From the NCBI GenBank assembly GCA_018061145.1, contig JAGOUR010000006.1, positions 1-57,020 of the forward strand: a stretch of DNA of 57,020 bases, in the 5' to 3' direction. Source of the stretch: Minisyncoccota bacterium. GTDB lineage: Bacteria > Patescibacteriota > Minisyncoccia > Phycocordibacterales > UBA9973. How positions within the stretch are numbered: position 1 is the first letter of the stretch; every line of letters starts with the position of its first letter. This document shows positions 808 through 55,750 of the stretch, one piece after another. The position numbers and the translations under genes were made by a program. The notes beneath the pieces are model-generated. The model had not been told where the DNA came from. It searched no databases and saw only the letters and a program-made list of their open reading frames with translations.

Positions 808-1362
808 TTAAAAAGTATATACTTCAAATAATATATCTGCGGACCATGGTTGCCAGACTTCTCCCTTTTTCAGAGCCTGAGCGGGAGTTCCATCCCTATT
901 AACTATATTGGCACTTATATTTAAAGATTTTATATTTACGATATAAGGTATGCTTTCAATCATTCTTATTGATTTGAATACAGACACGAAGCTACCCTCC
1001 ACAGACAATCCTACATTTATAATCCTCTTATCTACATTTGAAAATTCCACAGAAGACACAGTTGTTTTATTGCCCAGACTATTTGAATCTTTTTCGAGAC
1101 CAGAAACAAAGTCATCAATGGAATCTGGATTAATAAAATAAGAATCCACAATCTTATTATCATCAACAGCTTCTTTTATATTTTTAGACAAAATAGATCC
1201 TTGCTGTTTTTGCATAATCTTTTCATCCAAAGTCGCCTGCATCGCACTTGTATGAATATTTTTATTCACAATAACAGTAAATAGGAACACAAAAAAACCT
1301 ACTGAGATAATCATCAGGATAGAAGAAACTATGAGCAAAATATTTGTTTTTGATTTTTTCAT
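808..1362 (-). CDS. pilO: Type IV pilus inner-membrane protein, PilO-like
   Basis: 184 residues: a short basic N-terminus, one transmembrane helix (about residues 8-32), a short helical stretch, then an alpha/beta domain ending in FEVYTF. This is the PilO plan: a bitopic protein that pairs with PilN and links the cytoplasmic PilM ring to the pilus. Sequence identity in this family is low, so the call rests mainly on size, topology and its place directly after PilN and PilM. The late segment (VSVFKSIRMIESIPYIVNI) resembles the PilO core. It sits one base after the pilN stop and is probably translationally coupled. Confidence 0.7.
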   Translation of the reverse strand: MKKSKTNILLIVSSILMIISVGFFVFLFTVIVNKNIHTSAMQATLDEKIMQKQQGSILSKNIKEAVDDNKIVDSYFINPDSIDDFVSGLEKDSNSLGNKTTVSSVEFSNVDKRIINVGLSVEGSFVSVFKSIRMIESIPYIVNIKSLNISANIVNRDGTPAQALKKGEVWQPWSADILFEVYTF

Positions 1363-1363
1363 A

Positions 1364-1903
1364 TTATTTCAACACCAATATCATATTAAAATCTATATCC
1401 TGTGGTTTTATAAAATTAGAGATAGGTAAATCTACAGACAAAAAAGCTGGATCAGCAGACAAGGCATCCTTGAAGGTTCGCAGTGCAGCCCTATCCACAG
1501 CAGTGCCAACTACCTGCACTGTTATCTTTTTAGGATCTAAGGCGCTATAAGATACCTGACTAAACACTATACCCCGGGTCCTAAGAGACAGCATTTTTTC
1601 TAGTACATCTTCAGATATATACCTATCATTTTTCTTTGAAATTATGAAAGATAATTTTTCATTGGTTTTTAAAATTTCATTATTTAATTTATCAATATCA
1701 ATTTGCGGATTTTGTGCATTAAAAATTTCAAGATTAGACTGAGATATAGACTCTCTTAGTACTGAATACTTATATGATGGGGCGATAAACAGTGAAGCCA
1801 CAGCAGAGAGGATTGATATCATAAAAAAAGAAACAATCAAAAGTCGGAATATATATTCTTGCCTTAATTTGTCTTTATTTTTTTTAGGTAATAAATTAAT
1901 CAT
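1364..1903 (-). CDS. pilN: Type IV pilus inner-membrane protein, PilN-like
   Basis: 179 residues beginning MINLLPKK, the N-terminal signature of PilN, which docks into PilM. A transmembrane helix follows (about residues 19-41), then a coiled-coil-like linker and a C-terminal ferredoxin-like domain. In characterised pili, PilN binds PilM through its cytoplasmic N-terminus and pairs with PilO in the envelope. Its start overlaps the end of pilM by 8 bases, consistent with one operon pilM-pilN-pilO. No PilP or PilQ follows, which fits a cell without an outer membrane. Confidence 0.8.
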   Translation of the reverse strand: MINLLPKKNKDKLRQEYIFRLLIVSFFMISILSAVASLFIAPSYKYSVLRESISQSNLEIFNAQNPQIDIDKLNNEILKTNEKLSFIISKKNDRYISEDVLEKMLSLRTRGIVFSQVSYSALDPKKITVQVVGTAVDRAALRTFKDALSADPAFLSVDLPISNFIKPQDIDFNMILVLK

Positions 1904-2975
1904 AGATATAATCTCCCAGGGCGAGACCTAGAACTGTTAAATAAGACAATGATTCTTTTGCTGACATATATGGCACAGATTCATCCATATTTGATATATT
2001 GGTCCATGCATTTGCATATTCGACACGAGTCTTGAAGCTCACAGATAGATATGACGCCAATCCTGGAATATTTGATCCCCCTCCACAAAGAATAATCTTG
2101 GATATTGGATTTCTACTCTTCCCACTTTCAGACTTGTGAGTAGCCCAATAAACAAAATGCTTATTTAGCTCATCACGTAAAACTGCCACCACATTTAAAA
2201 CTGCGGGGAAAATATCTTCACCACTCTCAAGACCAAGCTCTCCAAAGGCATATTTTTTCTTCTCAGCCTCTTCGATAGAAATATGATAATGCTTGGATAT
2301 CATTTCAGTAAAAGTATCTCCACCTATATCAAAAGTAGAAGTGAAAACTATTTTTCTATTTACAGCTATAGAGATACCTGTGCGAGTCTCCCCAAAATCT
2401 ATTATCATAGTAGTCCCTATTTCATCTAGTGGTACGACAGCTTCAGCGATAGATTGAGCCTCAAGCTCAAAAGATATAGGCACTAATCCTGCGCGCTCAA
2501 AAACAAAAAGGTAGTCATCGACAACCTCAGAAGAAATAGCGACCACCTCTAGCGTCACATGTGTTTCAGTCTCTGATAAAATCTCGTAATCAAAAAGAGT
2601 GGATTTTGCAGAAAGAGGAATATGGTCTTCGAGTTGCAATAAAATTGTATCCCTCAGATCCCCCTCTTCTATTTTTACAATAGATAAAGTAAAAAGATAT
2701 ATCTGCTCCTCGGGTAGGGCCACCCGGACAAATTCCATATTTTCTTTTTCTTTTAATCTACTCAAGATAGAGATTAATTCTTCTGGGTCTTCTATCCTAC
2801 CTGACTTTATTATACCGCTATCAATTTTTTCCCTGCCATACTTCCCTAGCCTCAATCCAGAAGGAGACATCTTTAATTCACCGTATTTGATAGAGTGATC
2901 AGATATGTCCATAGAATACGAAAACATACCGAGTAGTTTAGGTGTAGGAAAATGCTTGCTGTATAATTGCTTCAT
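1896..2975 (-). CDS. pilM: Type IV pilus assembly protein PilM (actin-like ATPase)
   Basis: 359 residues with the actin/FtsA fold signatures of PilM: an N-terminal phosphate-1-like segment (SMDISDHSIKYGELK), the phosphate-2 strand TMIIDFGETRTGISI around residue 188, and the adenosine-binding IILCGGGSNIPGL near residue 290. PilM is a cytoplasmic ATPase that forms the ring to which PilN attaches. It is the first gene of the pilus operon. A TATAAT box on the minus strand (2990-2985) lies 9 nt before the ATG, so the mRNA is probably leaderless or nearly so. The motor ATPase PilB is encoded separately at 29637. Confidence 0.88.
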   Translation of the reverse strand: MKQLYSKHFPTPKLLGMFSYSMDISDHSIKYGELKMSPSGLRLGKYGREKIDSGIIKSGRIEDPEELISILSRLKEKENMEFVRVALPEEQIYLFTLSIVKIEEGDLRDTILLQLEDHIPLSAKSTLFDYEILSETETHVTLEVVAISSEVVDDYLFVFERAGLVPISFELEAQSIAEAVVPLDEIGTTMIIDFGETRTGISIAVNRKIVFTSTFDIGGDTFTEMISKHYHISIEEAEKKKYAFGELGLESGEDIFPAVLNVVAVLRDELNKHFVYWATHKSESGKSRNPISKIILCGGGSNIPGLASYLSVSFKTRVEYANAWTNISNMDESVPYMSAKESLSYLTVLGLALGDYIYD

Positions 2976-4009: not shown

Positions 4010-4990
4010 CTAAAGCATATTAACTAACTTATCTTGAGACGATATGTCACCATCCAATTCTCCAATTTTACGAAAAGTACCAGCACCAAATGTTTCATCC
4101 ACTAATCTTCCTATAGGCAAAATATTTCCAGTTATCATTCCCTTAAAAAACATATCAAAAACTTCTTCTTTATCTTGAAATTTATCAAAATTCTTCTGAA
4201 AAATTTTATCAACTAAAGTGTGCAAAAATTTTCTCTCTTGCTTATAGGTAAATCTTTCTGTATTTATTTTAGTACCGTAAGTCTTTCCAAGCAAACGCCC
4301 CACTGACTCTCTCCATAATTTATCATTATTTATCTCTGCATAAAATGTATCCTCATCAAAAAGTGGCTTACCAGGCTCGATAATAGCTTGTGGGTGTTTA
4401 GATATTATTTCTTTTGTCTGATTTGATTCATCAATAAAAAGTTTATTATCTAGAATTTTCAATACAGTCCTTTTTGTCATCTCTTCTGTAACTGCTTCAT
4501 TGAGATTTGTAAAATATATTTTCTCTCCATCTCTAGTCTGAACAGTTAAACCTATCCGATATTCTATTAACTCAGGATTTTCTTTGTTGGTAACCTGGAG
4601 TGCGCTATATGATTTAAAATGCAACATTTCATGAAAAACTTTAGCAGTGAATGCTAGATTAGAAAAATTCTCACGCATAACAACACCTTGCATGCCTGAA
4701 TTAAAATAAGCTGTACCTTTTTTGTCTGACCATTTTTCATCAGAAACAACATGAATATTATCCGGCGGTACGTCAAAATTTTTTACGCCATATTTTTGTC
4801 TAATTTCATTTGTAAGATTATTAACCATATCAATAATCTGCAACTCATTTGATGTTTTTTTTCTTTCGACTCTCTTTAAATGGTTAAAAACTTGATCGTT
4901 AAATGATTCTCCGCTATGCCCAAGAATTTGCTCTTTTTCTTTTTCTGAAATTTTTCCGACCACTCGATCAATTGATGAAAATTTTTCCAT
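4010..4990 (-). CDS. Putative zinc metallopeptidase-like protein (HEMLH motif)
   Basis: About 326 residues from the preferred start (MEKFSSIDRV). A longer start at 5056 would overlap the upstream gene by 44 bases. An HExxH zinc motif (FHEMLHF) lies around residue 120. About 40 residues later comes LNEAVTEEM, whose Glu resembles the third metal ligand of gluzincin-type peptidases. The rest is soluble, helical and lysine-rich, without signal peptide or membrane segment, so it should act in the cytoplasm. It follows the two large cysteine-rich genes on the same strand. A metal-dependent peptidase is an inference from the motif pair; I do not recognise a named family. Confidence 0.6.
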   Translation of the reverse strand: MEKFSSIDRVVGKISEKEKEQILGHSGESFNDQVFNHLKRVERKKTSNELQIIDMVNNLTNEIRQKYGVKNFDVPPDNIHVVSDEKWSDKKGTAYFNSGMQGVVMRENFSNLAFTAKVFHEMLHFKSYSALQVTNKENPELIEYRIGLTVQTRDGEKIYFTNLNEAVTEEMTKRTVLKILDNKLFIDESNQTKEIISKHPQAIIEPGKPLFDEDTFYAEINNDKLWRESVGRLLGKTYGTKINTERFTYKQERKFLHTLVDKIFQKNFDKFQDKEEVFDMFFKGMITGNILPIGRLVDETFGAGTFRKIGELDGDISSQDKLVNML

Positions 4991-5012
4991 ATATTTATTT
5001 ATATCATAAAAA

Positions 5013-6764
5013 TTAGATAACCTCCTGTTGGTAACACTTTTCGCAATAGAGAACAAAGTCCTGCTTTGGGTTTAACATTGAATCTATTACATTTTTACAT
5101 CTTCTACACGTTGTTTTGTATTTTTTTGAAGTAGGTTTTAAATCCGCAAAAACTCTCATTCTAGGAGTTGGGTGTACTGTCGGAAGAGGTATGTTCATAG
5201 TCCGATAAAATTCCAATTCTGGAGCAACTATTCTAAATGGCCGCCCTGTAACTTCACAACGAATCGCTTTGTTTAAAATATCATCAGTAACATCCTCTAT
5301 TGTTTTAGGTATTTCTTCTTTTTCTAAAATAACCATATTCTCAGCATTTGTCTCTGGGTCATTCAGACTATAACCACCCAAATCTTTTATCTGTTCATCG
5401 GAGAGCGGGTATGTACTACCTGCACTTGAAAAATTATACGGCTGAGCTGAAAAAGCAAAACCTAATCCATCACCATATTCCCCATCGTTAATCATCTTGG
5501 TTTTTATCTTATCGACAATTTTGAAATATTCTTCAGGTTCATATTGTGTATTTAAAATACAATATGATTTATTCTGTAAACCAAAACACATAAAACAATT
5601 TGAAAGATTCTTTGAGTTAAACACAAACTCGGAATCAGTACAAAATTTTGAGGAAACAGAAAATTTTACATTTGAAGATTGCGAGCCGACATTAGTCGTA
5701 TTGTATAAATTATGAGAATGACCACCAGAAAAAAGAATATCCATAGAATCTTTGTGAGACATGGCCCCGTCGGCATAACGAGTATGCTGACTTTTATCAG
5801 AATCCACCGAATCATACACGTCTTCACAATTCACAATGCCTACACCAGATACATTCTTTGACCCTATATTGTGTGAGGCATTCATGGGGAGTATTCGTAT
5901 TAAATCCCAAAACTTTTTTTCATACTCTCTCAATGTGTCCCTTGAAAGGGGGTACAAATTTTTAATGAACATTTCATATTCATCTTTTGTTAGCTGTTCA
6001 TTAAATACACAATATTTTTTATTACGGAGATTTACGCAACCAAAACAATAATCACAATTCCTGCAATCAAATAAAAACATACTCTCGACGATATGTGTTG
6101 AAAAATAAATATAAGATGATTTATATAGATAATCCGAGGCCAAACTATTGTAAACAAATTGTGAATGGCGAATAGCTCGAGAATCACCAATATCTTTACT
6201 CTTTAAAATCAGATTTGAATATCGTACATCTTCTGAATCAAAACAACCAAAGGCATAGTATCCATTTTTTAAATTTCTTCCCCCGTTTGTGTATTCACTA
6301 TTGATACTCAACGAGTCGCGATTCAAGAAAGACGGCATTGGGAATATTCTTCGTAGTGAGAGAAGTGTCTGCATTGGAGACACTTCATCCTGAAAAGAAG
6401 CAGAAAACATGAACGGATCAAATTCATCAGAAATAAAATACAGATAATCATAAACAGGAAAAGGACATTCTTGTGGCAGAATTGAAATCATCATCTCAGT
6501 ATGATTAGTCGCACTGCAAGAACGCTTGAAGAATCGATTACTCCCCATAAAAGCCAACCTGCGGATTCGACGACATGTCGGGCAATAATTTGGAGGAGGA
6601 ACTCGGAGTAATTTCAAGAATTCAATATCTTCATCTGTAATATTAAATTCATTTTCACAGTGATCATGCTTGCCTGCCCATGTGCACTGTCGCACATGAG
6701 GAACTAGATTCAAAAGAATTTGATCCATCACTGCGTCGTATTGTGGGGTTTTGTTTGGTTCCAT
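5013..6764 (-). CDS. Large cysteine-rich four-module protein, copy 1
   Basis: 583 residues, paralogous to the neighbour at 6768 and to 35540. The N-terminal zinc module contains NYCPTCRRIRRLAF. Two central cysteine-rich repeats end in CFGCVNLRNKKYCVFNEQL and CFMCFGLQNKSYCILNTQY, and a C-terminal module ends in LYCEKCYQQEVI. This copy is the most divergent: it has a longer N-terminus, and in the C-terminal module the usual CPxC pair is VHPTPR, so one metal site appears lost. No transmembrane segment or signal peptide is visible. It lies 3 bases after copy 2, as a tandem duplicate in one operon. CPR homologues often carry an uninformative CAIB/BAIF label. Function unknown. Confidence 0.8.
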   Translation of the reverse strand: MEPNKTPQYDAVMDQILLNLVPHVRQCTWAGKHDHCENEFNITDEDIEFLKLLRVPPPNYCPTCRRIRRLAFMGSNRFFKRSCSATNHTEMMISILPQECPFPVYDYLYFISDEFDPFMFSASFQDEVSPMQTLLSLRRIFPMPSFLNRDSLSINSEYTNGGRNLKNGYYAFGCFDSEDVRYSNLILKSKDIGDSRAIRHSQFVYNSLASDYLYKSSYIYFSTHIVESMFLFDCRNCDYCFGCVNLRNKKYCVFNEQLTKDEYEMFIKNLYPLSRDTLREYEKKFWDLIRILPMNASHNIGSKNVSGVGIVNCEDVYDSVDSDKSQHTRYADGAMSHKDSMDILFSGGHSHNLYNTTNVGSQSSNVKFSVSSKFCTDSEFVFNSKNLSNCFMCFGLQNKSYCILNTQYEPEEYFKIVDKIKTKMINDGEYGDGLGFAFSAQPYNFSSAGSTYPLSDEQIKDLGGYSLNDPETNAENMVILEKEEIPKTIEDVTDDILNKAIRCEVTGRPFRIVAPELEFYRTMNIPLPTVHPTPRMRVFADLKPTSKKYKTTCRRCKNVIDSMLNPKQDFVLYCEKCYQQEVI

Positions 6765-6767
6765 AAA

Positions 6768-8510
6768 TTAAATAACCTCTTGCTGATAACATTTTTCACA
6801 ATAAACTTTAAAAGACTTCCCGGGTGGATTCATGGTCTCGAACTCAACTTCACACAGACCAACATGACTGTGATTTTGCAAATCACACATACAAGCACGC
6901 TTATAAAAACGGAAAGGATTCTTCAATTCCAAGCGAGAATGGTAACGACAGTTTGGGCAATATCGTGGAATCGGTAAATTCATCTTACGATAAAAGGCTA
7001 GATCGTCGGGAAGTATTCTATATGCGGAAGTACACTGCATATCCACATTGCCATCATTTGGACAAGCTATAATTTCGCTACAAATATCATCATTTACTTC
7101 TTTTATATCATCGGGTATTTGATCGATGGTTACAGTAGTTGAGTGAGATTTTTTCTCCATTTCTTTCCATCTATAACCAGAACTTAAAACTTCATCGCGA
7201 GAAAGTGGGCACTCAGTAAAGGCTGCAGTCTCATTGTATGCAAATGGAGAAATTTCAGTTGGGAAATATTCACCAAATTTATACACCCTGCCGATCTTAT
7301 CTATGTATGGCATATCATCCATATGTTTTTTTATCTCTTCTATTTTTCTAAAATACTCCTCCTTTGTAAACTGCTTGTTGAAAATACAATATTGTTTTTT
7401 ATTTAAACTCACACACCCAAAACAATCCGAGCACCCCTTGCAGTTATCGGAATAAAATACATTGTTACTTCCCCCACCACAACTAAAAGCAAAAGCTACG
7501 TGACTAGCTCCCCCACCACCATTTGTAAATTCATAACACCCCTCAACTAAACCAGCAAATATAGCATCCTGAGAATCCTTCATAACATTTACACCGAAAA
7601 AAATGTTTTTAACATTTTCGGCATTAACAAGACCAAAACAATGGTATGCATTTTTAGAATTCTCCACAAAATCTCCCACAGTATCCACCGTATTTTTTAG
7701 GTGAGAAAACTTATGAATAGACCCAGAGACTAATTCAGTAAAAATATTTTGCGCATTTACTTGCCCTGAATAAGAACCTAGGTTCAGCTCCCCTACTGCT
7801 TTTTCATATTCTTGTTTTGTTAACTGCTGATTGGCAAAGACAAAGCTTTTATTTCGTAAATTTGATGACATGCAACAATTTGTACAATTCACACAATCAT
7901 ATAGAAAAGTAGAATCAATACACTGTTCACTCTCAATCAAAAAAGATGAATTGTAATTTGAGCCAGAAGATACTAACTCATAACACCATTCATTCTTTTT
8001 AATAATCATGGAGTCAAGACAGTTTTTATTGTGTTTAAAAACATAATTTGAATATTTTATATTTTCAGAATGATGCACATTGAATGATAAATAAATATCT
8101 TTACTCGTATAACAAAAATTTGCATATTCGCAACCTGTTCCGTTTCTCTTATTCTGATCTAGGGCCCTATGAGGCACCCGGTCACGAAGCTCTTTGAATT
8201 GTTCAAAAAATGAGCGGTTGAAATCATAATCTTGACCATATTCAAGACAGTCCCATTCATCGCTTATGTGGCATTTTGTACACCACACTGGCATTGGAGA
8301 TTCGGGCGCGTACATGGATATTATAGACTTGGAGCATTTCCCACATTCCCTCTTGTACATAAATCGCTCGTTCTTTGAAGACAATCGTCGCATGAATCTG
8401 CAATCTGGACACCAAGTCGGAGCTGGTACCCCCAGTTTTTCGTAGAAAGAAAAATCATCAGCCTCAATGACGAAATTTTGTTTACAGTTTTGGCAATTTC
8501 GATTTTCCAT
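6768..8510 (-). CDS. Large cysteine-rich four-module protein, copy 2
   Basis: 580 residues. CxxC pairs sit at residues 6-9, 34-37, 56-59 and 77-80, in a module with DDFSFYEKLGVPAPTWCPDC. The same module recurs near the C-terminus as DDLAFYRKMNLPIPRYCPNC, followed by KRACMC and VYCEKCYQQEVI. Between the two lie two Asn/Ser/Cys-rich repeats, each closing with a CxxCxxCxxC-like run and an LRNKxYCxxNxQ(x)TKxEY motif. The short repeating Cys/Asn/Ser periodicity suggests a beta-solenoid, which I infer rather than see. The termini look like zinc ribbons. It starts 2 bases after ruvX. Biochemical role unknown. Confidence 0.82.
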   Translation of the reverse strand: MENRNCQNCKQNFVIEADDFSFYEKLGVPAPTWCPDCRFMRRLSSKNERFMYKRECGKCSKSIISMYAPESPMPVWCTKCHISDEWDCLEYGQDYDFNRSFFEQFKELRDRVPHRALDQNKRNGTGCEYANFCYTSKDIYLSFNVHHSENIKYSNYVFKHNKNCLDSMIIKKNEWCYELVSSGSNYNSSFLIESEQCIDSTFLYDCVNCTNCCMSSNLRNKSFVFANQQLTKQEYEKAVGELNLGSYSGQVNAQNIFTELVSGSIHKFSHLKNTVDTVGDFVENSKNAYHCFGLVNAENVKNIFFGVNVMKDSQDAIFAGLVEGCYEFTNGGGGASHVAFAFSCGGGSNNVFYSDNCKGCSDCFGCVSLNKKQYCIFNKQFTKEEYFRKIEEIKKHMDDMPYIDKIGRVYKFGEYFPTEISPFAYNETAAFTECPLSRDEVLSSGYRWKEMEKKSHSTTVTIDQIPDDIKEVNDDICSEIIACPNDGNVDMQCTSAYRILPDDLAFYRKMNLPIPRYCPNCRYHSRLELKNPFRFYKRACMCDLQNHSHVGLCEVEFETMNPPGKSFKVYCEKCYQQEVI

Positions 8511-35539: not shown

Positions 35540-37321
35540 TTACGCCACCTCTTGGGAATAGCAGTGTTCGCAATATACGATCCGGCCACTCTCTGGCGGA
35601 ACCCCAGTCTCAAACACTCTTTCGCAGGGACTTGCCCCATGGTCATGAGTGGCCTGGTTTTTATAAACTAGATCTTTTGATCCATCCCCTGCACACATAC
35701 ACTCTGTCTTGTATAAATCCAACTTGAGTCTAAAATCGAGGCGCTCCATAGTACGACAAGCCGGACAAAGCGTCGGTAGTGGGATATTGTTCTTCTTGTA
35801 AAAAGTAAGTTCATCCGGCATCACACGAAATGCCTTGGTGCAATTGTGTCCGCATGTCGTCCGGTGTGCACACTCAAAAATCTCACCAGTTATTTTTTCA
35901 TCTACTGTATTTATATCGTCGGGAATATTCTCTGCCAAAATTGTCGGCACGTAATTCCTAGTCTCTGCATCACGCCAAGTATAACCCGCTGCCTCTGCCT
36001 GCTCTTTTGTCAGAGGGAAAAATTCTTGAGCGAGAGTCTCATTGTATGCCCATGCACTGAATTCTATCGGAAGGAATTCTCCATATTTATACACTCGGCC
36101 GTTCTTGTCCACATATGGCATATCTGTCATATGCTTTTTTATTTTCTCGACGAGCTCTGCATATTCTTCTTTGCTATACTGCTTGTTCAAAATACAATAT
36201 TGCTTTTTGCGCAAACCTACACAGCCAAATAAATCCGATCCTCCATTGGAACAGTTCACAGTATATTCTGTATCATGCATATTCTCCTGAGTAAATAATC
36301 CAAATTTCACATTTTGAATTCCCGTACCACAAGAAGAAGATTCATATACCAGTTCAGCTGCATCGCCCCAGATGGAGTAATCGTAGCAATCCTTACATCC
36401 GGGAATCTCCTGTAGAGATTGGCAGTAGCGGATATTCTCCCCTTCTCGGACGAGAAAGCTGTCTTTTGTATTTTTAGAATTAGACACGTATGACCCAGTA
36501 GAATCAACATTCTTAATACCTTGATGATTTTTATTTGGAAATTTATTCCAGAAATTATGAGCATCATTTTTTGCACGCTCTACACCCTCGCGTGTGTTTA
36601 ATTTGTATTCTGCTACACGCGCTAGATAATCTTCACGAGAGAGTTGCTCGTTGAAAAAACAATAATTTTTATTACGTAGGTTTACAGAGCCAAAACAATT
36701 CATACAGCCCTGACAATCCCGACAGAATAGTAGGTCTGAAGATTCCACGCACTGTGAAGAATAATTTACTCTATAACAAGATGTCAGCCAAAAACTCTCG
36801 TAGCAAGATTCAGCTTTTGATACATGAGACACATCAAAACATTCCTTAGAAAAGTTTATCCCATTAGAATACATGCACTCCTCTGGATTAGTAGCATTGA
36901 AAACCAGGAAGCAATTCTTTGGATCAGTAGCATTATTTGAGTATTCACTACCTGTACCACGAATGACATTCACAGCCTTGTATGGGACTGCGATCATTAG
37001 TTCATGTAGCTGGGCTAGGAATGGTCGTGACCAATCTATATCCATACCATAGTCCATCGGATCCCATGCATCCGATAGCCATACATCACGCTCGTAAACT
37101 TTTACAGGTGAATCAGGTGAGAACATAGAAAATATTTCTTTTCCAGAATAATCACTCTTTCTCTTGTAGAGACCTCTTTCATTTCGAAAAGCAAGTCTCC
37201 TCTGTGCACGGCACATCGGGCAAAAAGTTGGCGCCGGTACCTGCATCTTTTCGTAAAACGAAATATCATCTGAATCAATATTGAAATCTTTTTTACAATT
37301 CTGACATGTAGTTGTTTGCAT
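35540..37321 (-). CDS. Large cysteine-rich four-module protein, copy 3
   Basis: 593 residues, same plan as copies 1 and 2. The N-terminal module has TCQNCKKDFNIDSDDISFYE and PTFCPMCRAQRRLAFRNER, but the second CxxC pair of copy 2 is missing here (KRKSDYSGKE). Two cysteine repeats end in CFGSVNLRNKNYCFFNEQL and LFGCVGLRKKQYCILNKQY. The C-terminal module has DELTFYKKNNIPLPTLCPAC, TECMCAG and VYCEHCYSQEVA. It is transcribed divergently from the TrmB regulator, with TACAAT (37335-37330) 8 nt before its ATG. Function unknown. Confidence 0.82.
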   Translation of the reverse strand: MQTTTCQNCKKDFNIDSDDISFYEKMQVPAPTFCPMCRAQRRLAFRNERGLYKRKSDYSGKEIFSMFSPDSPVKVYERDVWLSDAWDPMDYGMDIDWSRPFLAQLHELMIAVPYKAVNVIRGTGSEYSNNATDPKNCFLVFNATNPEECMYSNGINFSKECFDVSHVSKAESCYESFWLTSCYRVNYSSQCVESSDLLFCRDCQGCMNCFGSVNLRNKNYCFFNEQLSREDYLARVAEYKLNTREGVERAKNDAHNFWNKFPNKNHQGIKNVDSTGSYVSNSKNTKDSFLVREGENIRYCQSLQEIPGCKDCYDYSIWGDAAELVYESSSCGTGIQNVKFGLFTQENMHDTEYTVNCSNGGSDLFGCVGLRKKQYCILNKQYSKEEYAELVEKIKKHMTDMPYVDKNGRVYKYGEFLPIEFSAWAYNETLAQEFFPLTKEQAEAAGYTWRDAETRNYVPTILAENIPDDINTVDEKITGEIFECAHRTTCGHNCTKAFRVMPDELTFYKKNNIPLPTLCPACRTMERLDFRLKLDLYKTECMCAGDGSKDLVYKNQATHDHGASPCERVFETGVPPESGRIVYCEHCYSQEVA

Positions 37322-37423
37322 ATATCTATATTGTATAACTTATATAATAAGTTTATAAACGACACACAAATCATATCACTTTATTACTATATTGTCAATA
37401 TAAATACAACAAAAATACCTATA

Positions 37424-37455
37424 TTTATCAAGATATTTGCCTTATTTTTGATAAA
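37424..37455. promoter_or_regulatory. Inverted repeat, candidate TrmB operator
   Basis: TTTATCAA (37424-37431) and TTGATAAA (37448-37455), 16-nt spacer, just upstream of the trmB -35 box and inside the divergent promoter region shared with the cysteine-rich gene. Binding by the TrmB regulator is inferred. Confidence 0.4.
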
Positions 37456-37459
37456 AGTG

Positions 37460-37487
37460 TTGACAATTTTTCAACAAATATGATACT
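37460..37487 (+). promoter_or_regulatory. Promoter of the TrmB-like gene
   Basis: TTGACA (37460-37465), 16-nt spacer, GATACT (37482-37487), then 8 nt to the ATG at 37496; probably leaderless. Confidence 0.6.
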
Positions 37488-37495
37488 ATATACTT

Positions 37496-38254
37496 ATGTT
37501 AGAAAAAGTACTTCACCAATTAGGATTGGGAAACAAGGAACAAATAGTATACAAGCTTATTTTAGAGCATGCCAAAATCGCTCCGGCTCTTTTGGCGAGA
37601 CTAGCCAAGATAAACAGAACTACTGTATATAGTGTGGCAAAAGAACTCAAAGAAAAGGGGCTAATTGTTGAAGACCTAGGTGGACGCACACTGTACTATC
37701 TCCCCTCTCGAGCAGATGAACTCTCTAAAATAATTTCTGAGGAAAAAGAAAAAACTAAACAAAAAGAAAATTCAATAAAAGAATTGCAGGAAATTCTAAA
37801 AAGCTCACCTGAATCAAAAACATACTCTGTACCAAAAATAAGATTTGTGGATGAAATAGATATGGAAAAATATCTTTATGAGGCAGCTCCTCGTTGGATC
37901 GAGAACCAACAAAAGACAGATACTACATGGTGGGGATTCCAGGATCATACATTTGTTGAACATTTTGAGGATTGGATAGTCTGGTTTTGGAAAAATGCTC
38001 CAAAAGAAATAAATTTGAAACTATTTTCAAATGAGTCCAGCATTGAATCACAAATGAATAAAAAACAAATAGACCGCCGTGAAATAAAATTCTGGAAAGA
38101 ATCAGAGGGGTTTACTGGTACCCAGTGGGTAGTCGGTTCATATATCATCCTTATCGTCACAAAAGAAAGACCATTTTATCTAGTAGAAATACATGATGCT
38201 GTCATGGCTCAAAATATGCGGGAAGTATTTAAGAAACTTTGGGGGAAGGAGTAG
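37496..38254 (+). CDS. TrmB-family transcriptional regulator
   Basis: 252 residues. An N-terminal winged helix-turn-helix (LGLGNKEQIVYKLILEHAKIAP, then INRTTVYSVAKELKEKGLI) matches TrmB. A coiled-coil linker follows (ISEEKEKTKQKENSIKEL), and then an alpha/beta C-terminal domain with RFVDEIDMEKYLYEAAPRWI that may sense a ligand. TrmB proteins usually control sugar or stress genes; in CPR genomes their targets are unknown. The gene is divergent from cysteine-rich copy 3, and an inverted repeat lies between them, so control of itself and of that gene is plausible. Confidence 0.85.
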   Translation: MLEKVLHQLGLGNKEQIVYKLILEHAKIAPALLARLAKINRTTVYSVAKELKEKGLIVEDLGGRTLYYLPSRADELSKIISEEKEKTKQKENSIKELQEILKSSPESKTYSVPKIRFVDEIDMEKYLYEAAPRWIENQQKTDTTWWGFQDHTFVEHFEDWIVWFWKNAPKEINLKLFSNESSIESQMNKKQIDRREIKFWKESEGFTGTQWVVGSYIILIVTKERPFYLVEIHDAVMAQNMREVFKKLWGKE

Positions 38255-43251: not shown

Positions 43252-44604
43252 CTATTTGAACATGATTCTGATCCTTTCTATCTCTTGGAGTAGGCTCGGA
43301 TTCGTCTTTAAATCTTCTTTTATTTTGAGGTGTGAGTGTATGACTGTGGTGTGATCTCTACCCCCAAACTTTTGACCTATCAGTGGGTAAGATATATTGA
43401 AATCTTCTCGTAGCAGATACATAGCTACTTGTCGAGCTTGGACTATTTCTTTTCTTCTAGTCTTCTCGTATACATGAGCTTCAGGGATATTGTAATAATC
43501 AGCAATTATTTTGATAATATCTTTTATGGCAACGTTTTTCTTTGGTCTGATATTATTCTTTATTAGATTTTTTGTCTCATTTAGTGAGAGTGATTTATCT
43601 TTCAGTTGAGATTGGCAGATGATTGTATTTAGACTACCCTCCAGTTCTCGTATATTCCCCTCTAACACCTCTGCAAGGTAGGAAATGACTGGTTCATCCA
43701 CTATTATATTTGTCTTCTGTAGCTTGGCTTTTATGATAGCTACACGAGATTCATAATCTGGTTCTGTTATCTGGACTGTCATACCAGAAGCGAATCTAGA
43801 TTGTAGGCGCTCTTCTAATCCTTGGATAAAGTTTGGATGTTTATCTGAAGAAAAAACAATTTGCTTATTGTTTTCATGAAAGATGTTGAATAGATGGAAC
43901 AGTTCTTCTTGTGTCTTTTCTTTTCCTGATATGAATTGGATATCGTCCATAATTATCACATCGTATTTTCTGTATTTCTCCTTAAAACCATTTGGATTTT
44001 TGTTTTGAATTGAGTTTATGTAGTCAATAGCAAATTTTTCAAGACTTACATAATAAATCTTTTTATTTGGAAATTTATTCTTGATACTATTCCCTATCGA
44101 TTGGATCATATGTGTCTTACCTAGACCCGTACCTCCATATACAAAGAATGGATTGTATGTCTCCCCTGGTGTTGTGATGATAGCTTGGGAAACTGCATAT
44201 GCAAGCTCGTTGAATGGTCCAACAATAAAATTATTGAATGTATATTTAGGATTTAAGTTGTCGTCCTTGTTTACGTAGAGATCAGCCAGTGGCAGTTCTT
44301 TGTTTATAGATACAGGGGCTTGTTCATTTTCTGTTTTTGGTTTTACTACTTCGTGTTTTGTGATTATGTATTCTATATTGCGTACACTATCCTCATAATT
44401 CATTAGAGTTTTAAGGATTAGCTTGTGAAATTTATTATTCAACCAGTCTTTTACGAATTCATTTGGTACTCCTATAAATAGTACTCCCTCCTCTTCTTTT
44501 ACTATCTGTGTATTTTTAAACCAGGTTGTAAAATTTGCTTTTGAAATGGATAATTCGATTTCCGCCAAACAGCTTTCCCATAATTTTTTTGTATCTGATA
44601 CCAT
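43252..44604 (-). CDS. dnaA: Chromosomal replication initiator DnaA
   Basis: 450 residues with all four domains: the N-terminal interaction domain (LWESCLAEIELSISKANFTTWF), a short linker, AAA+ with Walker A VYGGTGLGKTHMIQSIG and Walker B YDVIIMDDIQFISGKEKTQEE, and the C-terminal box-binding domain with IGQKFGGRDHTTVIHSHLKI. DnaA opens oriC in its ATP form. DnaA boxes flank the gene on both sides, so autoregulation is likely. Confidence 0.97.
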   Translation of the reverse strand: MVSDTKKLWESCLAEIELSISKANFTTWFKNTQIVKEEEGVLFIGVPNEFVKDWLNNKFHKLILKTLMNYEDSVRNIEYIITKHEVVKPKTENEQAPVSINKELPLADLYVNKDDNLNPKYTFNNFIVGPFNELAYAVSQAIITTPGETYNPFFVYGGTGLGKTHMIQSIGNSIKNKFPNKKIYYVSLEKFAIDYINSIQNKNPNGFKEKYRKYDVIIMDDIQFISGKEKTQEELFHLFNIFHENNKQIVFSSDKHPNFIQGLEERLQSRFASGMTVQITEPDYESRVAIIKAKLQKTNIIVDEPVISYLAEVLEGNIRELEGSLNTIICQSQLKDKSLSLNETKNLIKNNIRPKKNVAIKDIIKIIADYYNIPEAHVYEKTRRKEIVQARQVAMYLLREDFNISYPLIGQKFGGRDHTTVIHSHLKIKEDLKTNPSLLQEIERIRIMFK

Positions 44605-44672
44605 AGTTCCTATTATACTAGTTAAGATTTATAATCGTCCTGTTTGAATTGTGTGCAATCCTGTGTATATCG

Positions 44673-44719
44673 TGTGGATAACTTTATGGGTTGCATAATG
44701 CACCATTATAGTATATATT
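44673..44719 (+). promoter_or_regulatory. DnaA box and rpmH promoter
   Basis: TGTGGATAA (44673-44681) is an exact DnaA box. It is followed by TTGCAT (44691-44696), a 17-nt spacer and TATATT (44714-44719), and rpmH begins 7 nt later. DnaA bound here could affect both dnaA and the ribosomal-protein operon. Confidence 0.65.
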
Positions 44720-44726
44720 AGACATT

Positions 44727-44867
44727 ATGTCTCAAACATATCAACCAAACAAACGTAAAAGAGCTAAAACACATGGTTTTCTTGTACGTACAAAGACAAA
44801 AAATGGCCGCAAGGTCACTGCCCGCCGACGCCAAAAAGGTCGCGCTAGTGTATCTATAAAGAAATAA
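44727..44867 (+). CDS. rpmH: 50S ribosomal protein L34
   Basis: 46 residues starting [20 protein letters not shown], with [20 protein letters not shown] next: a textbook L34, although the family start is usually MKRT. It sits at the head of the conserved rpmH-rnpA-yidD-yidC-jag cluster next to dnaA. rnpA starts one base after its stop. The promoter places transcription start at or next to the ATG. Confidence 0.95.
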
Positions 44868-44868
44868 C

Positions 44869-45204
44869 ATGCTTTCCAAGAAGTATCGTGTTAATAAGGG
44901 GGTTTTTGAAGCCATTATGAAAGAAGGAAAAATGGTCTCAAGCCCTCTTTTTACTTTCCGGTATATACCCTCCACTGATGGTGTGGTTCATTTTGCTGTA
45001 GTTGCCCCAAAAAGCGTTGTAAAAACAGCTGTTTTAAGGAATTCTCTCAGGAGAAAGGGTTATCGTATGGCTGGCCCATTACTGGCAAAGCCTTTTATTG
45101 GTGCTCTTTTCTTTAAAAAGGAGGCTTTAAAAGCTGAAAATGATCAAATATCTGAAAATATAACGTTTTTATTTAAAAAAGCAGGATTATACTTGTCCCG
45201 TTAG
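44869..45204 (+). CDS. rnpA: Ribonuclease P protein component
   Basis: 111 residues. It begins LSKKYRVNKGVFEAIMKEGK, and the RNA-binding signature is in VVKTAVLRNSLRRKGYRM around residues 50-67 (family consensus RNRxKRxxR, weaker here). The protein assists the RNase P RNA in removing tRNA 5' leaders. The RNA subunit gene was not seen in the window. Its TAG stop (45202-45204) lies inside the left arm of palindromic element C. Confidence 0.88.
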   Translation: MLSKKYRVNKGVFEAIMKEGKMVSSPLFTFRYIPSTDGVVHFAVVAPKSVVKTAVLRNSLRRKGYRMAGPLLAKPFIGALFFKKEALKAENDQISENITFLFKKAGLYLSR

Positions 45205-45314
45205 AGATGTGTTATTTGTGTTTTTTTATATAGGTTTGCTTATAAATAAGGTTGTATTTATTAATTTAAATTAAAAAGAAACGGAAATGTAAGCATTTCC
45301 TATCTCTAATGGGA
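45196..45314 (+). repeat. Palindromic start-codon element C (119 bp)
   Basis: Arms TCCCGTTAGAGAT (45196-45208) and ATCTCTAATGGGA (45302-45314) pair with one G-T wobble. The inner hairpin is GGAAATGT-AA-GCATTTCC. The left arm contains the TAG stop of rnpA and the right arm provides the first base of the yidD ATG (45314-45316), so the element exactly bridges the two genes. Confidence 0.88.
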
Positions 45315-45520
45315 TGGCTAAAATAATTATTTGGTTGATAGATATATATCAAAAAACTCCTTTAAAATCGCACTATTCTTGCAAGTTCCTGCCTACTTGC
45401 TCTGAGTATAGCAAGCAGGCCTTTGAAAAATATGGATTTTTTAAGGGTTTTTATTTGTCTGTTTGGCGTGTGCTCCGATGCCACCCATGGCAAAAACATA
45501 GCTATGATCCTGTGAGGTAA
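45314..45520 (+). CDS. yidD: Membrane protein insertion efficiency factor YidD
   Basis: 68 residues, typical length. The three-Cys signature is KFLPTCSEYSKQAFEKYG preceded by SHYSCK and followed by LRCHPW, with YDPV at the end. YidD is a small peripheral membrane protein that helps YidC-dependent insertion. Its ATG is formed by the right end of element C. yidC follows 29 bp later. Confidence 0.94.
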   Translation: MAKIIIWLIDIYQKTPLKSHYSCKFLPTCSEYSKQAFEKYGFFKGFYLSVWRVLRCHPWQKHSYDPVR

Positions 45521-45537
45521 TCATCATAATTTTATGC

Positions 45538-45543
45538 TACAAT
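45538..45543 (+). promoter_or_regulatory. -10 box of yidC
   Basis: TACAAT, then exactly 6 nt to the yidC ATG at 45550. It suggests an additional leaderless transcript inside the cluster. No clear -35 was found. Confidence 0.5.
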
Positions 45544-45549
45544 AGACGG

Positions 45550-46293
45550 ATGAGCGCACTATGGAATACATTTTTTTATCAGCCTATATATAATATGCTG
45601 GTTTTTTTAATAGATAAGGTTACTTTTGGGGATATTGGTTTTGCTATTATCATTTTGACTATACTCGTAAAACTCATCCTCTTCCCTCTTGCTAAAAAGT
45701 CTATACAGAGTCAGATTTACATGAAAAAGCTTGAGCCAGAACTCAAGAAATTGAAAACTGATTATCCAAACAAAGAAGAACAAGCAAAAAAACAATTTGA
45801 ATTGTATAAGAAATACGGAGTGAACCCATTCTCTGGTTGTTTGGTTGTTTTACTCCAACTGCCCGTTATATTCGCTCTCTACTATGTATTTATTAATTTC
45901 AAGATAGACAGTAGTATCATTTATAGTTTTATAAATGTACCGGTTGTCATGAATACAAATTTCTTGGGATTATTTGATCTTTCTTTGAATCACAGCATAT
46001 TTCTAGCTCTATTGGCTGGTATTTCTCAATATTTCCAGGCATACCTAGCTACTCCAAAGAAGACTATCAAGGATGTAGAGGTGGTATCAGATAATACCAA
46101 AAAGACTTTTCAAGAAGAATTGGCAAGTAGTATGCAGTTAAATATTCGTTATGTATTGCCGGTGTTTGTAGCATTTATCGCTTATACTTTCTCTGCAGGG
46201 GTTGCATTATACTGGATTGTGAGTAATATATTCACTATAGGTCAGGAATGGTACGTAAGAGACCAAATAGCCAAAAAAGAAAATAACTTCTAA
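45550..46293 (+). CDS. yidC: Membrane protein insertase YidC/Oxa1
   Basis: 247 residues: the short Oxa1-type form without the large periplasmic domain of proteobacterial YidC. Five membrane segments. The family core includes LVKLILFPLAKKSIQSQIYM, the cytoplasmic hairpin PELKKLKTDYPNKEEQAKKQ, and LVVLLQLPVIFALYYVF. The positive residue expected in the hydrophilic groove is probably Lys in TILVKLILFP. It inserts small membrane proteins with or without Sec. Element B follows 14 bp after its stop. Confidence 0.95.
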   Translation: MSALWNTFFYQPIYNMLVFLIDKVTFGDIGFAIIILTILVKLILFPLAKKSIQSQIYMKKLEPELKKLKTDYPNKEEQAKKQFELYKKYGVNPFSGCLVVLLQLPVIFALYYVFINFKIDSSIIYSFINVPVVMNTNFLGLFDLSLNHSIFLALLAGISQYFQAYLATPKKTIKDVEVVSDNTKKTFQEELASSMQLNIRYVLPVFVAFIAYTFSAGVALYWIVSNIFTIGQEWYVRDQIAKKENNF

Positions 46294-46307
46294 TTAAACG
46301 TATATGG

Positions 46308-46427
46308 ATCCCGTATGAAATGTGTATGTAATATTTATACGGATTTTACAAAATAAACTTAGTCGGTATTATTAATGATAATATAATTAAATACGGAAAT
46401 GTAAACATTTCCTATTTCATACGGGAT
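46308..46427 (+). repeat. Palindromic start-codon element B (120 bp)
   Basis: Arms ATCCCGTATGAAAT (46308-46321) and ATTTCATACGGGAT (46414-46427), a perfect 14-bp match. Internal TATAAT at 46382-46387, ACGGATTT motif, and the hairpin GGAAATGT-AA-ACATTTCC. The last two bases start the khpB ATG (46426-46428). It is very similar to element A along its length; the one arm difference (C to T) is matched by G to A in the other arm. Confidence 0.9.
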
Positions 46428-46893
46428 GGATAAAGATTCTATTAAAAAAATTGTTGAAGAGATATTTACACATACAGGATGTACTCTTTCTGGTTGTGAG
46501 ATCACAGAAGATGCGGGTATGACATGGGTAGCCATAAGTACTCCAGACTCGAGATTCCTTATTGGCCGTGAGGGAGATACTCTCCGGTCTTTGAATCATC
46601 TTGTTCGCAAGCTTTCTGAAAAGAATCACACAGAGGAAGCCACCTCTGCCCTGTTCGTAGATATCAATGGTTATCAGAAGAAAAGATTTGATAATCTAAA
46701 AGCCACTGCATATATGCTCGCAGAGCGTGCTAGATACTTCAAGAGTAATATAGAGGTAGATCCTATGCCAGCTTCAGAGAGACGCATAATTCACATGTTT
46801 TTAGAGAATGCAAAAGATGTGACCACTGAATCTACTGGATTTGGACCAAATAGAAAAGTCGTTATAAAGTACGTTGGAAACGATACAATATAG
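46426..46893 (+). CDS. khpB: RNA-binding KH-R3H protein (Jag/KhpB/EloR type)
   Basis: 155 residues. It lacks the long Jag N-terminal domain and linker of Firmicutes. A KH domain (ISTPDSRFLIGREGDTLRSL) is followed by an R3H domain (PMPASERRIIHMFLENAKDV, then STGFGPNRKVVI). KhpB binds mRNAs and small RNAs and affects cell elongation in Gram-positives. It stands in its usual place after yidC. Its start codon comes from element B. Confidence 0.93.
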   Translation: MDKDSIKKIVEEIFTHTGCTLSGCEITEDAGMTWVAISTPDSRFLIGREGDTLRSLNHLVRKLSEKNHTEEATSALFVDINGYQKKRFDNLKATAYMLAERARYFKSNIEVDPMPASERRIIHMFLENAKDVTTESTGFGPNRKVVIKYVGNDTI

Positions 46894-46896
46894 ATA

Positions 46897-46933
46897 ATAT
46901 AAAAACCGCAACATTGTTGCGGTTTTTATATTA
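46897..46933. terminator. Bidirectional terminator
   Basis: AATATAAAAACCGCAAC, ATT loop, GTTGCGGTTTTTATATT, ending the khpB unit and the convergent secretion locus. Confidence 0.93.
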
Positions 46934-48250
46934 TTGTAGGTTCAAGCTCCAGAGAGTGTAGTCTTTTTTATTTATAAAGAATAGTGTCCTTTCTGCTTCA
47001 TCTACTGCCAGTTTCGTTGCATCTATTGGTGTTTCGTATATTGAGTTCGATATCTCGCTAGATGTCCCTATCTCTGTATTTATTCTTATGAACTTGTCAT
47101 CAAATGAGACCTTGCCCTGATACCATATATCTGGATACGCACTCCCCTCTGTTGTGTTTGGTATAGCGCAGTATATCCTAATGCTGTCATTTGTCCATAC
47201 ACATTTTTCTGGTAGTCCAAATAAATTCAGTGGAGTATATTTGTTTGTAGATATTGTATATATACCGAGTATTGGACCATTGTTTGTACTACTACTGTAT
47301 AGCACTTTATCTCCGGATGGAGACACTAGTGTAGTCAATCCTTTTATCCCACCTATGATTTTTCGTAGGCTCCCCTTTATCGTTGGCAGTGAGTATATAT
47401 AACCCTCCGTATTATACGATGCTTTTGTTGTTATAAAGATGGTTTGATTTACTGGCCATTGGGCTAACCACTCAGAGAATGTTGAGTTTAGTATTAAAGT
47501 TCTTTTCACTTCGGTAAATGACCCTATTGTTCCAGTCGAACCATTTGTATTTTTCTGTAAATAAAAGAAATTATCTCCGTTTGGTGCTATTGATACATCT
47601 ATCACATTGTCTGGTAGGAATCCACTCTTGCTACCTCCTAGTGTGCCTGCTACAGTTTTTATCGTTAATCCATCTTCACCCAAGAGTCTATATATTACAT
47701 TGTTCGCATTTGAGCCAAAGATTCCTTCGTGGATTTCTGGTATTGTTGAGTTTGATATTTTACCAGTAGCTTTAGTATCTAGATATGTCTGATAGATGTG
47801 ACCGCTACTCTTCTTCATATATCTTATCGATGGAACTTTTTCTGTTGTTGGTTCTGGGGGTGTAATCGTCTTCGTTACCTTTGTTGTTTTGCTCTTTGCT
47901 ATTTCTTCTATTTTCTCTTCTATCGGTTTAGGTGGGAGAGGTCTCTCATCTATGAAAAATGTCACCCCTGATACAGCAAAATCAGTGAGCTGTGTAAACT
48001 TTGAATTTATATTTATACCACTGACTATATTTTTTATGGCACTGCCTAGGGCATCTGTAGGGCTAGGTGTCGAGTCATTGTTTGCTTTAGAGCCAAAGCC
48101 AAAAGGAGAAAATATTCTATTTATTGTTGAGGTGTCACCAGGGTTATTTATATCCCCTGCTGGTTTGTTCATGGCATAGTAAATATATCCACCACCCACA
48201 GAGGCGATAGCTATAAATCCTATTATCATTAATATTGTATTTCGTGACAT
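46931..48250 (-). CDS. Membrane-anchored protein with beta-propeller-like repeats
   Basis: About 439 residues from MSRNTILMII. The longer ORF to 48289 overlaps the upstream gene. One N-terminal membrane helix (ILMIIGFIAIASVGGGYIYYA) is followed by a Pro/Lys-rich stalk (EEKIEEIAKSKTTKVTKT). A C-terminal domain with recurring strands such as IDVSIAPNGDNFFYLQK, LVSPSGDKVLYSSS and LAVDEAERTLFFINK looks like a WD40/TolB-type propeller. It is the last gene of the type IV secretion-like locus. Role unknown; an extracellular scaffold or sensor is possible. Confidence 0.65.
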   Translation of the reverse strand: MSRNTILMIIGFIAIASVGGGYIYYAMNKPAGDINNPGDTSTINRIFSPFGFGSKANNDSTPSPTDALGSAIKNIVSGININSKFTQLTDFAVSGVTFFIDERPLPPKPIEEKIEEIAKSKTTKVTKTITPPEPTTEKVPSIRYMKKSSGHIYQTYLDTKATGKISNSTIPEIHEGIFGSNANNVIYRLLGEDGLTIKTVAGTLGGSKSGFLPDNVIDVSIAPNGDNFFYLQKNTNGSTGTIGSFTEVKRTLILNSTFSEWLAQWPVNQTIFITTKASYNTEGYIYSLPTIKGSLRKIIGGIKGLTTLVSPSGDKVLYSSSTNNGPILGIYTISTNKYTPLNLFGLPEKCVWTNDSIRIYCAIPNTTEGSAYPDIWYQGKVSFDDKFIRINTEIGTSSEISNSIYETPIDATKLAVDEAERTLFFINKKDYTLWSLNLQ

Positions 48251-48261
48251 ATTTTTATATT

Positions 48262-50463: not shown

Positions 50464-50464
50464 A

Positions 50465-51451: not shown

Positions 51452-51486
51452 TCCTTTATTATATGATACATTTAGAATTCAAACAA

Positions 51487-53322: not shown

Positions 53323-53323
53323 A

Positions 53324-53977: not shown

Positions 53978-54013
53978 TTTTATATTATATCATCAATTTT
54001 TATTTTTAGTGCA

Positions 54014-54041
54014 AAAAAACCTCTACTACGAGAGGTTTTTT
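54014..54041 (-). terminator. Terminator inside the secretion locus
   Basis: AAAAAACCTCT/AGAGGTTTTTT stem, overlapping the last codons of the PrgI gene. It separates PrgI from the VirB4 pair, which has its own -10 box. Confidence 0.8.
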
Positions 54042-54439: not shown

Positions 54440-54454
54440 ATATATGATTGGTGT

Positions 54455-55732: not shown

Positions 55733-55750
55733 CCATTTTTTTATTTATTA

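What the first reader, a model, noticed from the sequence alone, without database searches (positions are those of the whole stretch)
5013..8510. Cysteine-rich giant proteins with mirrored four-module architecture
Seen: the proteins at 5013-6764, 6768-8510 and 35540-37321 (580-593 residues) share a plan. The N-terminal zinc module (DDxxFYxKxxVPxPTxCPxC) recurs at the C-terminus (DDLAFYRKMNLPIPRYCPNC in copy 2). The two central repeats each close with CFGCxxLRNKxYCxxNxQxTKxEY. So the protein is module-repeat-repeat-module, from two internal duplications. The central Asn/Ser/Cys periodicity suggests a beta-solenoid with cysteine ladders that could bind metal or Fe-S clusters. Three copies in 57 kb of a reduced genome signals importance. 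CPR homologues are labelled CAIB/BAIF by transitive error as far as I recall.
Basis: partly seen in the sequence, partly recalled or inferred. Interest (0 to 1): 0.8.

Follow-up and report, generated by a model that had tools for sequence, protein, structure and literature searches.

The report
Zinc-capped double-solenoid protein arrays
Some tiny host-dependent bacteria (Patescibacteria) carry up to two dozen different copies of an undescribed zinc-ended, coil-shaped protein, and in every genome searched these copies come with, and usually lie near, one particular motor ATPase, which points to an uncharacterised molecular system.

Summary
The three ORFs are real (minus strand) and the claimed plan holds: zinc module, repeat 1, repeat 2, linker, zinc module. 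Profile comparison supports both internal duplications (E 1e-22 and 2e-37). Each terminal module is a treble clef plus a CxxC-x17-CxxC-like ribbon. The repeats are predicted as tight 12-residue-per-coil beta-solenoids resembling Tenebrio antifreeze protein. I found no enzyme-family match.

The genome has 12 copies, not 3. About 8% of sampled Patescibacteria genomes carry the family, with 1-27 copies, often in tandem arrays. The copies are old paralogues. Between orthologues the solenoid is the most conserved part; between paralogues it is the most divergent. This suggests a fixed, copy-specific role for each solenoid.

The main new result is a link to one VirD4/HerA-type ATPase clade ('ATPaseS'). 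It occurs in all 51 genomes with clear family members and in about 5 without. It lies within 10 kb of a copy in 23 of 29 genomes (1.9 expected), whereas other ATPases of the same type show no linkage. ATPaseS lacks a membrane anchor. TrmB-type regulators sit divergently beside many copies.

Best reading: a cargo or cargo-adaptor repertoire served by a dedicated ATPase. The partnership is well supported genomically; the biochemical role and any secretion are inferred.

The parts
5013..6764 (-). family copy 1 (P0001, 583 aa)
   Evidence: member of 12-copy family (L012)
6342..6758 (-). copy 1 N-terminal zinc module; first tetra-Cys site intact, second lost (CTDY)
5484..6341 (-). copy 1 solenoid repeats 1 (5946-6341) and 2 (5484-5888)
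5016..5279 (-). copy 1 C-terminal module; first site degenerate, second (last) site intact
6768..8510 (-). family copy 2 (P0002, 580 aa), modelled by AlphaFold2 (pLDDT 87.5, pTM 0.89)
8175..8510 (-). copy 2 N-terminal module: treble clef C6 C9 C34 C37 plus ribbon C56 C59 C77 C80
   Evidence: (PF13451 25.8 bits, over cut-off)
7776..8174 (-). copy 2 solenoid repeat 1, closing with CVNCTNCCMSSNLRNKSFVFANQQLTKQEY
7311..7718 (-). copy 2 solenoid repeat 2, closing with CSDCFGCVSLNKKQYCIFNKQFTKEEY
7086..7310 (-). copy 2 conserved linker (GEYFPTEISPFAYNETAA)
6771..7085 (-). copy 2 C-terminal module: sites C483/C493/C518/C521 and C540/C553/C571/C574
35540..37321 (-). family copy 3 (P0003, 593 aa); second N-terminal site replaced (SSEV)
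37496..38254 (+). TrmB-type transcriptional regulator (PF01978), divergent from copy 3, 175 bp away; same gene type recurs beside family copies elsewhere
37322..37495 (.). intergenic region between copy 3 and the regulator; short AT-rich inverted repeats only, operator not identified

Best explanation
A Patescibacteria-specific family of soluble proteins: two tandem tight beta-solenoids capped at both ends by duplicated zinc modules. They work with one dedicated soluble ATPase of the VirD4/TraG-HerA superfamily ('ATPaseS'). The constant zinc ends most likely dock the proteins to a shared partner, possibly ATPaseS, while each solenoid holds a fixed, copy-specific binding surface. The array is thus a repertoire of cargo or cargo-adaptors that the ATPase moves or remodels, perhaps into the T4SS. 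Shown by computation: architecture, array organisation, ancient paralogy, solenoid constraint, co-occurrence and linkage with ATPaseS, divergent TrmB regulators. Inferred: physical docking, ligand binding, movement by the ATPase, any link to secretion.
For: Co-occurrence: all 29 clear carriers in the phylum sample and all 26 in the own GTDB family have ATPaseS; non-carriers with it: 2 of 348 and 5 of 34. ATPaseS clade: 23 carrier and 2 non-carrier rows, SH-aLRT 99. Linkage: within 5 kb 19/29 (1.2 expected), within 10 kb 23/29 (1.9 expected); other T4CP-type paralogues 3/60 and 4/60 (2.5 and 4.0 expected); own family 15/20 within 10 kb, several at 64-223 bp. Regulators: 20 of 23 TrmB genes within 2 genes of a copy, p 1e-9, 15 divergent. 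Paralogue-specific solenoid: orthologues 92% identical in solenoid vs 82-86% in modules; paralogues 35% vs 45-51%; dN/dS 0.06 in solenoids; nearest relative in another genome for 117 of 147; collinear arrays in G135 and G377. No signal peptide-like or TM segment in nearly all copies.
Against: ATPaseS lacks the N-terminal TM anchor of a classical coupling protein. It is not linked to virB4 in the own genome (window C16 vs ATPaseS on C3). Five own-family non-carriers keep ATPaseS, so it has, or recently had, a role without the family. No physical interaction, translocation or ligand has been shown. Docking through the zinc ends is a guess from their constancy. Linkage alone could reflect joint inheritance. 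The p-values are not corrected for phylogeny.
Confidence: 0.4

Rival explanations
1. Nucleic-acid-binding repertoire: the zinc modules bind DNA or RNA and the HerA/VirD4-type ATPase is the translocase that acts on that nucleic acid (uptake, processing or packaging).
For: ATPaseS matches DUF87/HerA and TrwB DNA-binding models over cut-off; treble-clef and ribbon folds often bind nucleic acids (general knowledge); Patescibacteria are thought to need external nucleotides (PMC12102498).
Against: No known nucleic-acid-binding domain beyond generic zinc modules; the variable, specificity-bearing part is the solenoid, not the zinc ends; no nuclease, relaxase or polymerase recurs beside the arrays.
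Confidence: 0.25
2. Host-directed effectors or attachment proteins exported through the Patescibacteria T4SS, each copy recognising a different host structure.
For: VirD4-type ATPase partner; T4SS genes are near-universal in the phylum with no known substrate (PMC12102498); multi-copy repertoire in host-dependent bacteria; beta-solenoid resembles adhesins and tailspikes in shape (Z below 8).
Against: Solenoids are under strong purifying selection between orthologues (dN/dS 0.06), unlike an arms race; ATPaseS is soluble; the family occurs in only about 8% of the phylum although the T4SS is near-universal; no secretion signal was tested.
Confidence: 0.17
3. Metal or redox proteins: the Cys-rich solenoid stores zinc or carries Fe-S clusters.
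For: 22-50 Cys per protein; Cys recur at 12-residue spacing in repeat 1; CutA (divalent-cation tolerance family, by sequence resemblance) beside some arrays (8 of 78 loci).
Against: Solenoid Cys positions are mostly only partly conserved (26-78%; exceptions near the closing motifs), unlike the end-module ligands; no known Fe-S motif; CutA neighbours are confined to few lineages.
Confidence: 0.08
4. Family and ATPaseS are only co-inherited neighbours in an island, without working together.
For: Both are patchy and physically linked; the tests used here do not remove shared ancestry.
Against: Copies at many separate places in one genome still come with ATPaseS; the dependence is one-way (no clear carrier lacks ATPaseS); other ATPases in the same genomes show no linkage; concordant presence/absence within genera g84, g248 and g330.
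Confidence: 0.1

Closest known systems
zf_Tbcl / zf_Tbcl_2 (PF13451, PF23477) and TIGR04272 CxxC-x17-CxxC small zinc proteins
   Same: The terminal modules match the same two kinds of zinc unit
   Different: The known entries are short domains; here the pair is duplicated at both ends of a 300-residue double solenoid
Tenebrio molitor antifreeze protein (1ezg), 12-residue-per-coil beta-solenoid
   Same: Predicted repeat 1 superposes over 82 of 82 residues, rmsd 2.4, Z 7.1; hydrophobic period 12.0
   Different: 8% identity, no TCT ice-binding motif in copy 2, soluble bacterial protein; Z below 8, so shape similarity only
VirD4/TraG coupling ATPases of Patescibacteria (PMC12102498)
   Same: ATPaseS matches T4SS-DNA_transf, TrwB_AAD_bind and TraG-D_C over cut-off; T4CP homologues are abundant in the phylum and mostly far from virB4
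   Different: A separate clade limited almost entirely to family carriers, without TM anchor, linked to solenoid arrays
Pentapeptide-repeat proteins (Qnr, MfpA, AlbG)
   Same: Cytoplasmic beta-solenoids; appear in the fold list at low score
   Different: 12-residue rather than 5-residue period, zinc caps, tandem duplication
phrog_15341 (phage, function unknown)
   Same: Matches solenoid repeats in 13 of 27 members, E down to 6.6e-8
   Different: No zinc modules in the match; may reflect similar Cys/Asn-rich repeat composition

Membership tests
zf_Tbcl (PF13451) | score over the curated cut-off with CxxC...CPxCR | tested here: met
   3 of 12 own copies over 24 bits, 5 more at 18.7-20.4 bits; four ligands present in 95 of 95 members
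TIGR04272 CxxC-x17-CxxC | two CxxC pairs about 17 residues apart, model match | tested here: inconclusive
   8 of 27 members match at E<=0.01, best 5.9e-6; not compared with the curated cut-off per protein
Tenebrio-type antifreeze proteins | 12-residue coils | tested here: met
   hydrophobic period 12.0 (0 of 200 shuffles) and 12.25 (p 0.005), none in control regions; 12-residue strand spacing in the model
Tenebrio-type antifreeze proteins | TCT ice-binding motif | tested here: not met
   no TCT in copy 2
VirD4/TraG coupling protein (ATPaseS) | P-loop ATPase with T4SS-DNA_transf and TraG-D_C domains over cut-off | tested here: met
VirD4/TraG coupling protein (ATPaseS) | N-terminal transmembrane anchor | tested here: not met
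   no N-terminal segment with KD19 >= 1.6 in 11 of 11 ATPaseS; present in most paralogues tested
VirD4/TraG coupling protein (ATPaseS) | couples substrates to a VirB4 T4SS channel | not testable with these tools
   own ATPaseS is on another contig than the window's VirB4
T4SS effector | translocation into a target cell | not testable with these tools
   needs experiment
CaiB/BaiF CoA-transferase | match to a CoA-transferase III model | tested here: not met
   no such match in Pfam or NCBIfam for the 3 window copies or 27 members
Pentapeptide-repeat proteins | 5-residue repeat | tested here: not met
   dominant hydrophobic period is 12
Known anti-phage defence proteins (PADLOC) | confident model match of a family member | tested here: inconclusive
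   none better than E 0.0088 for the family; ATPaseS matches mad8/HerA models only as a superfamily relative

The most novel reading that the evidence does not exclude
Patescibacteria carry an undescribed translocation or effector system: a repertoire of zinc-capped double-solenoid cargo proteins, each with its own fixed ligand, served by a dedicated soluble VirD4/HerA-type ATPase and controlled by TrmB-type regulators, possibly delivering the cargo to the host cell through the relaxase-less T4SS whose substrates are unknown.
Probability: 0.22. Interest if true: 0.9.

Novelty: new variant of a known kind. Interest (0 to 1): 0.7.

Why it matters
The T4SS and the many VirD4-type ATPases of Patescibacteria have no known substrates, although T4SS genes are reported essential for epibiont growth (PMC12102498). 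This finding names one ATPase clade and a concrete protein family that always comes with it, so the question of what such an ATPase handles becomes testable by pull-down. It also shows that genomes of 0.5-1.4 Mb can devote up to about 5% of their length to old, individually conserved paralogues of one undescribed fold, which argues for an important non-redundant role.

Tried and rejected
(1) Known enzyme or family: no usable match in Pfam, NCBIfam, PHROGs or PDB sequence for whole proteins. (2) Recent selfish expansion: rejected; copies are old, mostly intact, and nearest relatives are in other genomes. (3) Antigenic variation or arms race in the solenoid: not supported; solenoids are the slowest part between orthologues. 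(4) Gene conversion of the modules as the cause of that pattern: tested; modules still match their orthologue best in 23 of 26, solenoids in 26 of 26. (5) DnaK/DnaJ/GrpE and CutA neighbours: in own-family genomes this synteny exists without family copies (G132, G307) and it does not recur across families, so dropped. (6) Phage or plasmid origin: no match for P0002 in phages or plasmids, one partial hit in viral contigs. (7) Whole-chain fold search: no hit; the solenoid-only model gives generic beta-solenoids. (8) A search with the window's own TrmB gene alone was too divergent to show linkage; a profile did. (9) Literature on CAIB/BAIF labels or this family: nothing found.

Full report
1. Observation. 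The three ORFs exist at the given coordinates, on the minus strand. Their plan is N-module (about residues 1-112 of P0002), repeat 1 (113-245), repeat 2 (265-400), a conserved linker (401-475) and C-module (476-580). In profile-profile comparison the N- and C-modules align with probability 99.5 (E 1e-22) and the two repeats with 99.95 (E 1.8e-37); the eight cross pairs give at most 2.4. The duplications are real.

2. The modules. Each end holds a treble clef (CxxC...CPxCR) followed by a CxxC...CxxC ribbon. PF13451 passes its cut-off in three own copies, PF23477 matches 11 of 27 members and TIGR04272 8 of 27. The first N-terminal and last C-terminal tetra-Cys sites are complete in 95 of 95 members, the first C-terminal site in 89. 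The second N-terminal site has all four Cys in 51; the window and own copies without it have lost three or four ligands together (SSEV, DTEY, DNDD, CTDY). That is how a metal site is lost. Zinc itself is inferred.

3. The repeats. Hydrophobicity in the 95-member alignment has period 12.0 in repeat 1 and 12.25 in repeat 2, absent in control regions; Cys in repeat 1 correlates at lags 9, 12 and 15, but its power spectrum alone is not significant. AlphaFold2 on the full chain gives pLDDT 87.5, pTM 0.89; on the two repeats alone pLDDT 81.9, pTM 0.72, with strands spaced 12 residues apart. Repeat 1 superposes on Tenebrio antifreeze protein over 82 of 82 residues (rmsd 2.4, Z 7.1); repeat 2 on antigen 43 (Z 7.6). 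All Z are below 8, so this says 'tight beta-solenoid', not kinship. No enzyme family is implied.

4. Copies and distribution. The window's genome (734 kb, 97.9% complete) has 12 copies on five contigs, about 21 kb or 3% of the genome. In a 380-genome sample of the phylum 32 have a match; 29 are clear, with 1 to 27 copies, some in arrays of about 14-23 within 32-60 kb. In the own GTDB family 26 of 60 genomes have it, up to 23 copies. The best relatives in one genome for each of 84,980 species carry Patescibacteria or unspecified-bacterium titles, except one filed as Burkholderiales whose gene order looks patescibacterial. No match in phage or plasmid records.

5. Evolution. In a tree of 147 copies the nearest relative lies in another genome for 117; only 3 have an array neighbour as nearest relative. 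Two genomes of one genus (G135, G377) share 13 orthologous pairs at 80-96% identity, largely collinear. Between these orthologues the solenoids are 92% identical and the modules 82-86%; between paralogues of one genome the solenoids are 35% and the modules 45-51% (Mann-Whitney p 6e-23; pairs are not independent). dN/dS is 0.06 in both repeats, 0.08-0.12 in the modules and 0.14 in the linker; dS is high, so these are rough. Gene conversion of modules explains little. Each copy therefore seems to keep its own solenoid surface for a fixed purpose.

6. Neighbours. Flanks from 23 genomes of 10 GTDB families were clustered. Only two gene types recur near copies in as many as 8 families: VirD4/TraG-type ATPases and TrmB-type regulators; the next best recur in 3. 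TrmB genes: 20 of 23 within two genes of a copy (p 1e-9), 15 of those 20 divergent. In the window the regulator at 37496-38254 is divergent from copy 3.

7. The ATPase. Every carrier genome examined has three or four such ATPases. One clade, ATPaseS, is special. In the tree it holds 23 carrier rows and 2 non-carrier rows (SH-aLRT 99). By score and clade all 29 clear carriers have it and 2 of 348 non-carriers do. In the own family all 26 carriers have it and 5 of 34 non-carriers do; the five lie in genera that otherwise carry the family. Together that is 51 of 51 distinct carriers. Presence and absence agree inside genera g84, g248 and g330 (with two g330 exceptions that keep a diverged or partial ATPaseS). 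ATPaseS is within 10 kb of a copy in 23 of 29 genomes against 1.9 expected; the other ATPases 4 of 60 against 4.0. Lists of copies were truncated, so these are lower bounds. Three weak matches (G194, G266, G335; fragments or with stops) were not counted as carriers. ATPaseS passes the cut-offs of T4SS-DNA_transf, TrwB_AAD_bind and TraG-D_C but lacks an N-terminal membrane segment in 11 of 11 tested.

8. Mechanism. The dependence is one-way: copies do not occur without ATPaseS, while ATPaseS sometimes occurs without copies. That fits a motor and its cargo or adaptors. Constant zinc ends suggest a common partner; copy-specific, conserved solenoids suggest one ligand each; separate regulators suggest conditional expression. 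Whether the ATPase remodels, moves or exports these proteins is not shown. Patescibacteria have a relaxase-poor T4SS and thousands of VirD4 homologues of unknown use, mostly far from virB4 (PMC12102498). Delivery to the host is the most interesting extension, but it is weakened by the missing membrane anchor and by strong purifying selection.

9. Verdict. The metal/Fe-S idea for the solenoid is unsupported beyond Cys content. The genome-wide repertoire with its own ATPase clade is the finding of value. The zinc units, the solenoid class and the ATPase superfamily are each known; their combination appears undescribed in the sources I could search. I therefore file it as a new variant of a known kind.

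Noticed in passing
window 4010-5056 (-): 348-aa protein directly downstream of copy 1 with FHEMLHFKS (HExxH, zincin-like) and no Pfam or PADLOC match; might be a protease.
   Followed up: partly
window 43252-57020: dnaA followed by a T4SS-like cluster (VirB4-like 51487-53322, PrgI/VirB3-like 54026-54439), matching the dnaA-proximal T4SS described in PMC12102498.
   Followed up: no
window 808-2975: PilM/PilN/PilO-like genes lie 3-4 kb from copies 1 and 2; another own array (L127:4587-8059) lies beside CutA- and PilB/PilC-like genes. Not a recurrent neighbour elsewhere.
   Followed up: partly
L009 (G000:C5:2189-3730): Own copy truncated at 521 aa without the last zinc ribbon, likely frameshifted or degenerating; it lies near a third VirD4-type ATPase (L129:4615-7341).
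   Followed up: no
L085 (JAMPXW010000002.1): Contig filed as a Burkholderiales MAG carries the patescibacterial family, ATPase and DnaJ synteny; probably misbinned.
   Followed up: no
G194:C19:9073-10235: Distant relatives (27-32% identity, partly with stops) lie about 2.2 kb from that genome's best ATPase match (C19:5557-6840, 1028-aa frame), possibly a sister system.
   Followed up: no
L128:2234-4783 (-): A second VirD4-type ATPase carries the same zf_Tbcl_2 zinc unit (38 bits) that caps the solenoid proteins; similar ribbons occur in relatives (L044, L072, L119).
   Followed up: partly
phrog_15341; Campylobacter and Vibrio phages: Phage proteins of unknown function, some annotated 'insect antifreeze', resemble the Cys/Asn solenoid repeats.
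   Followed up: partly
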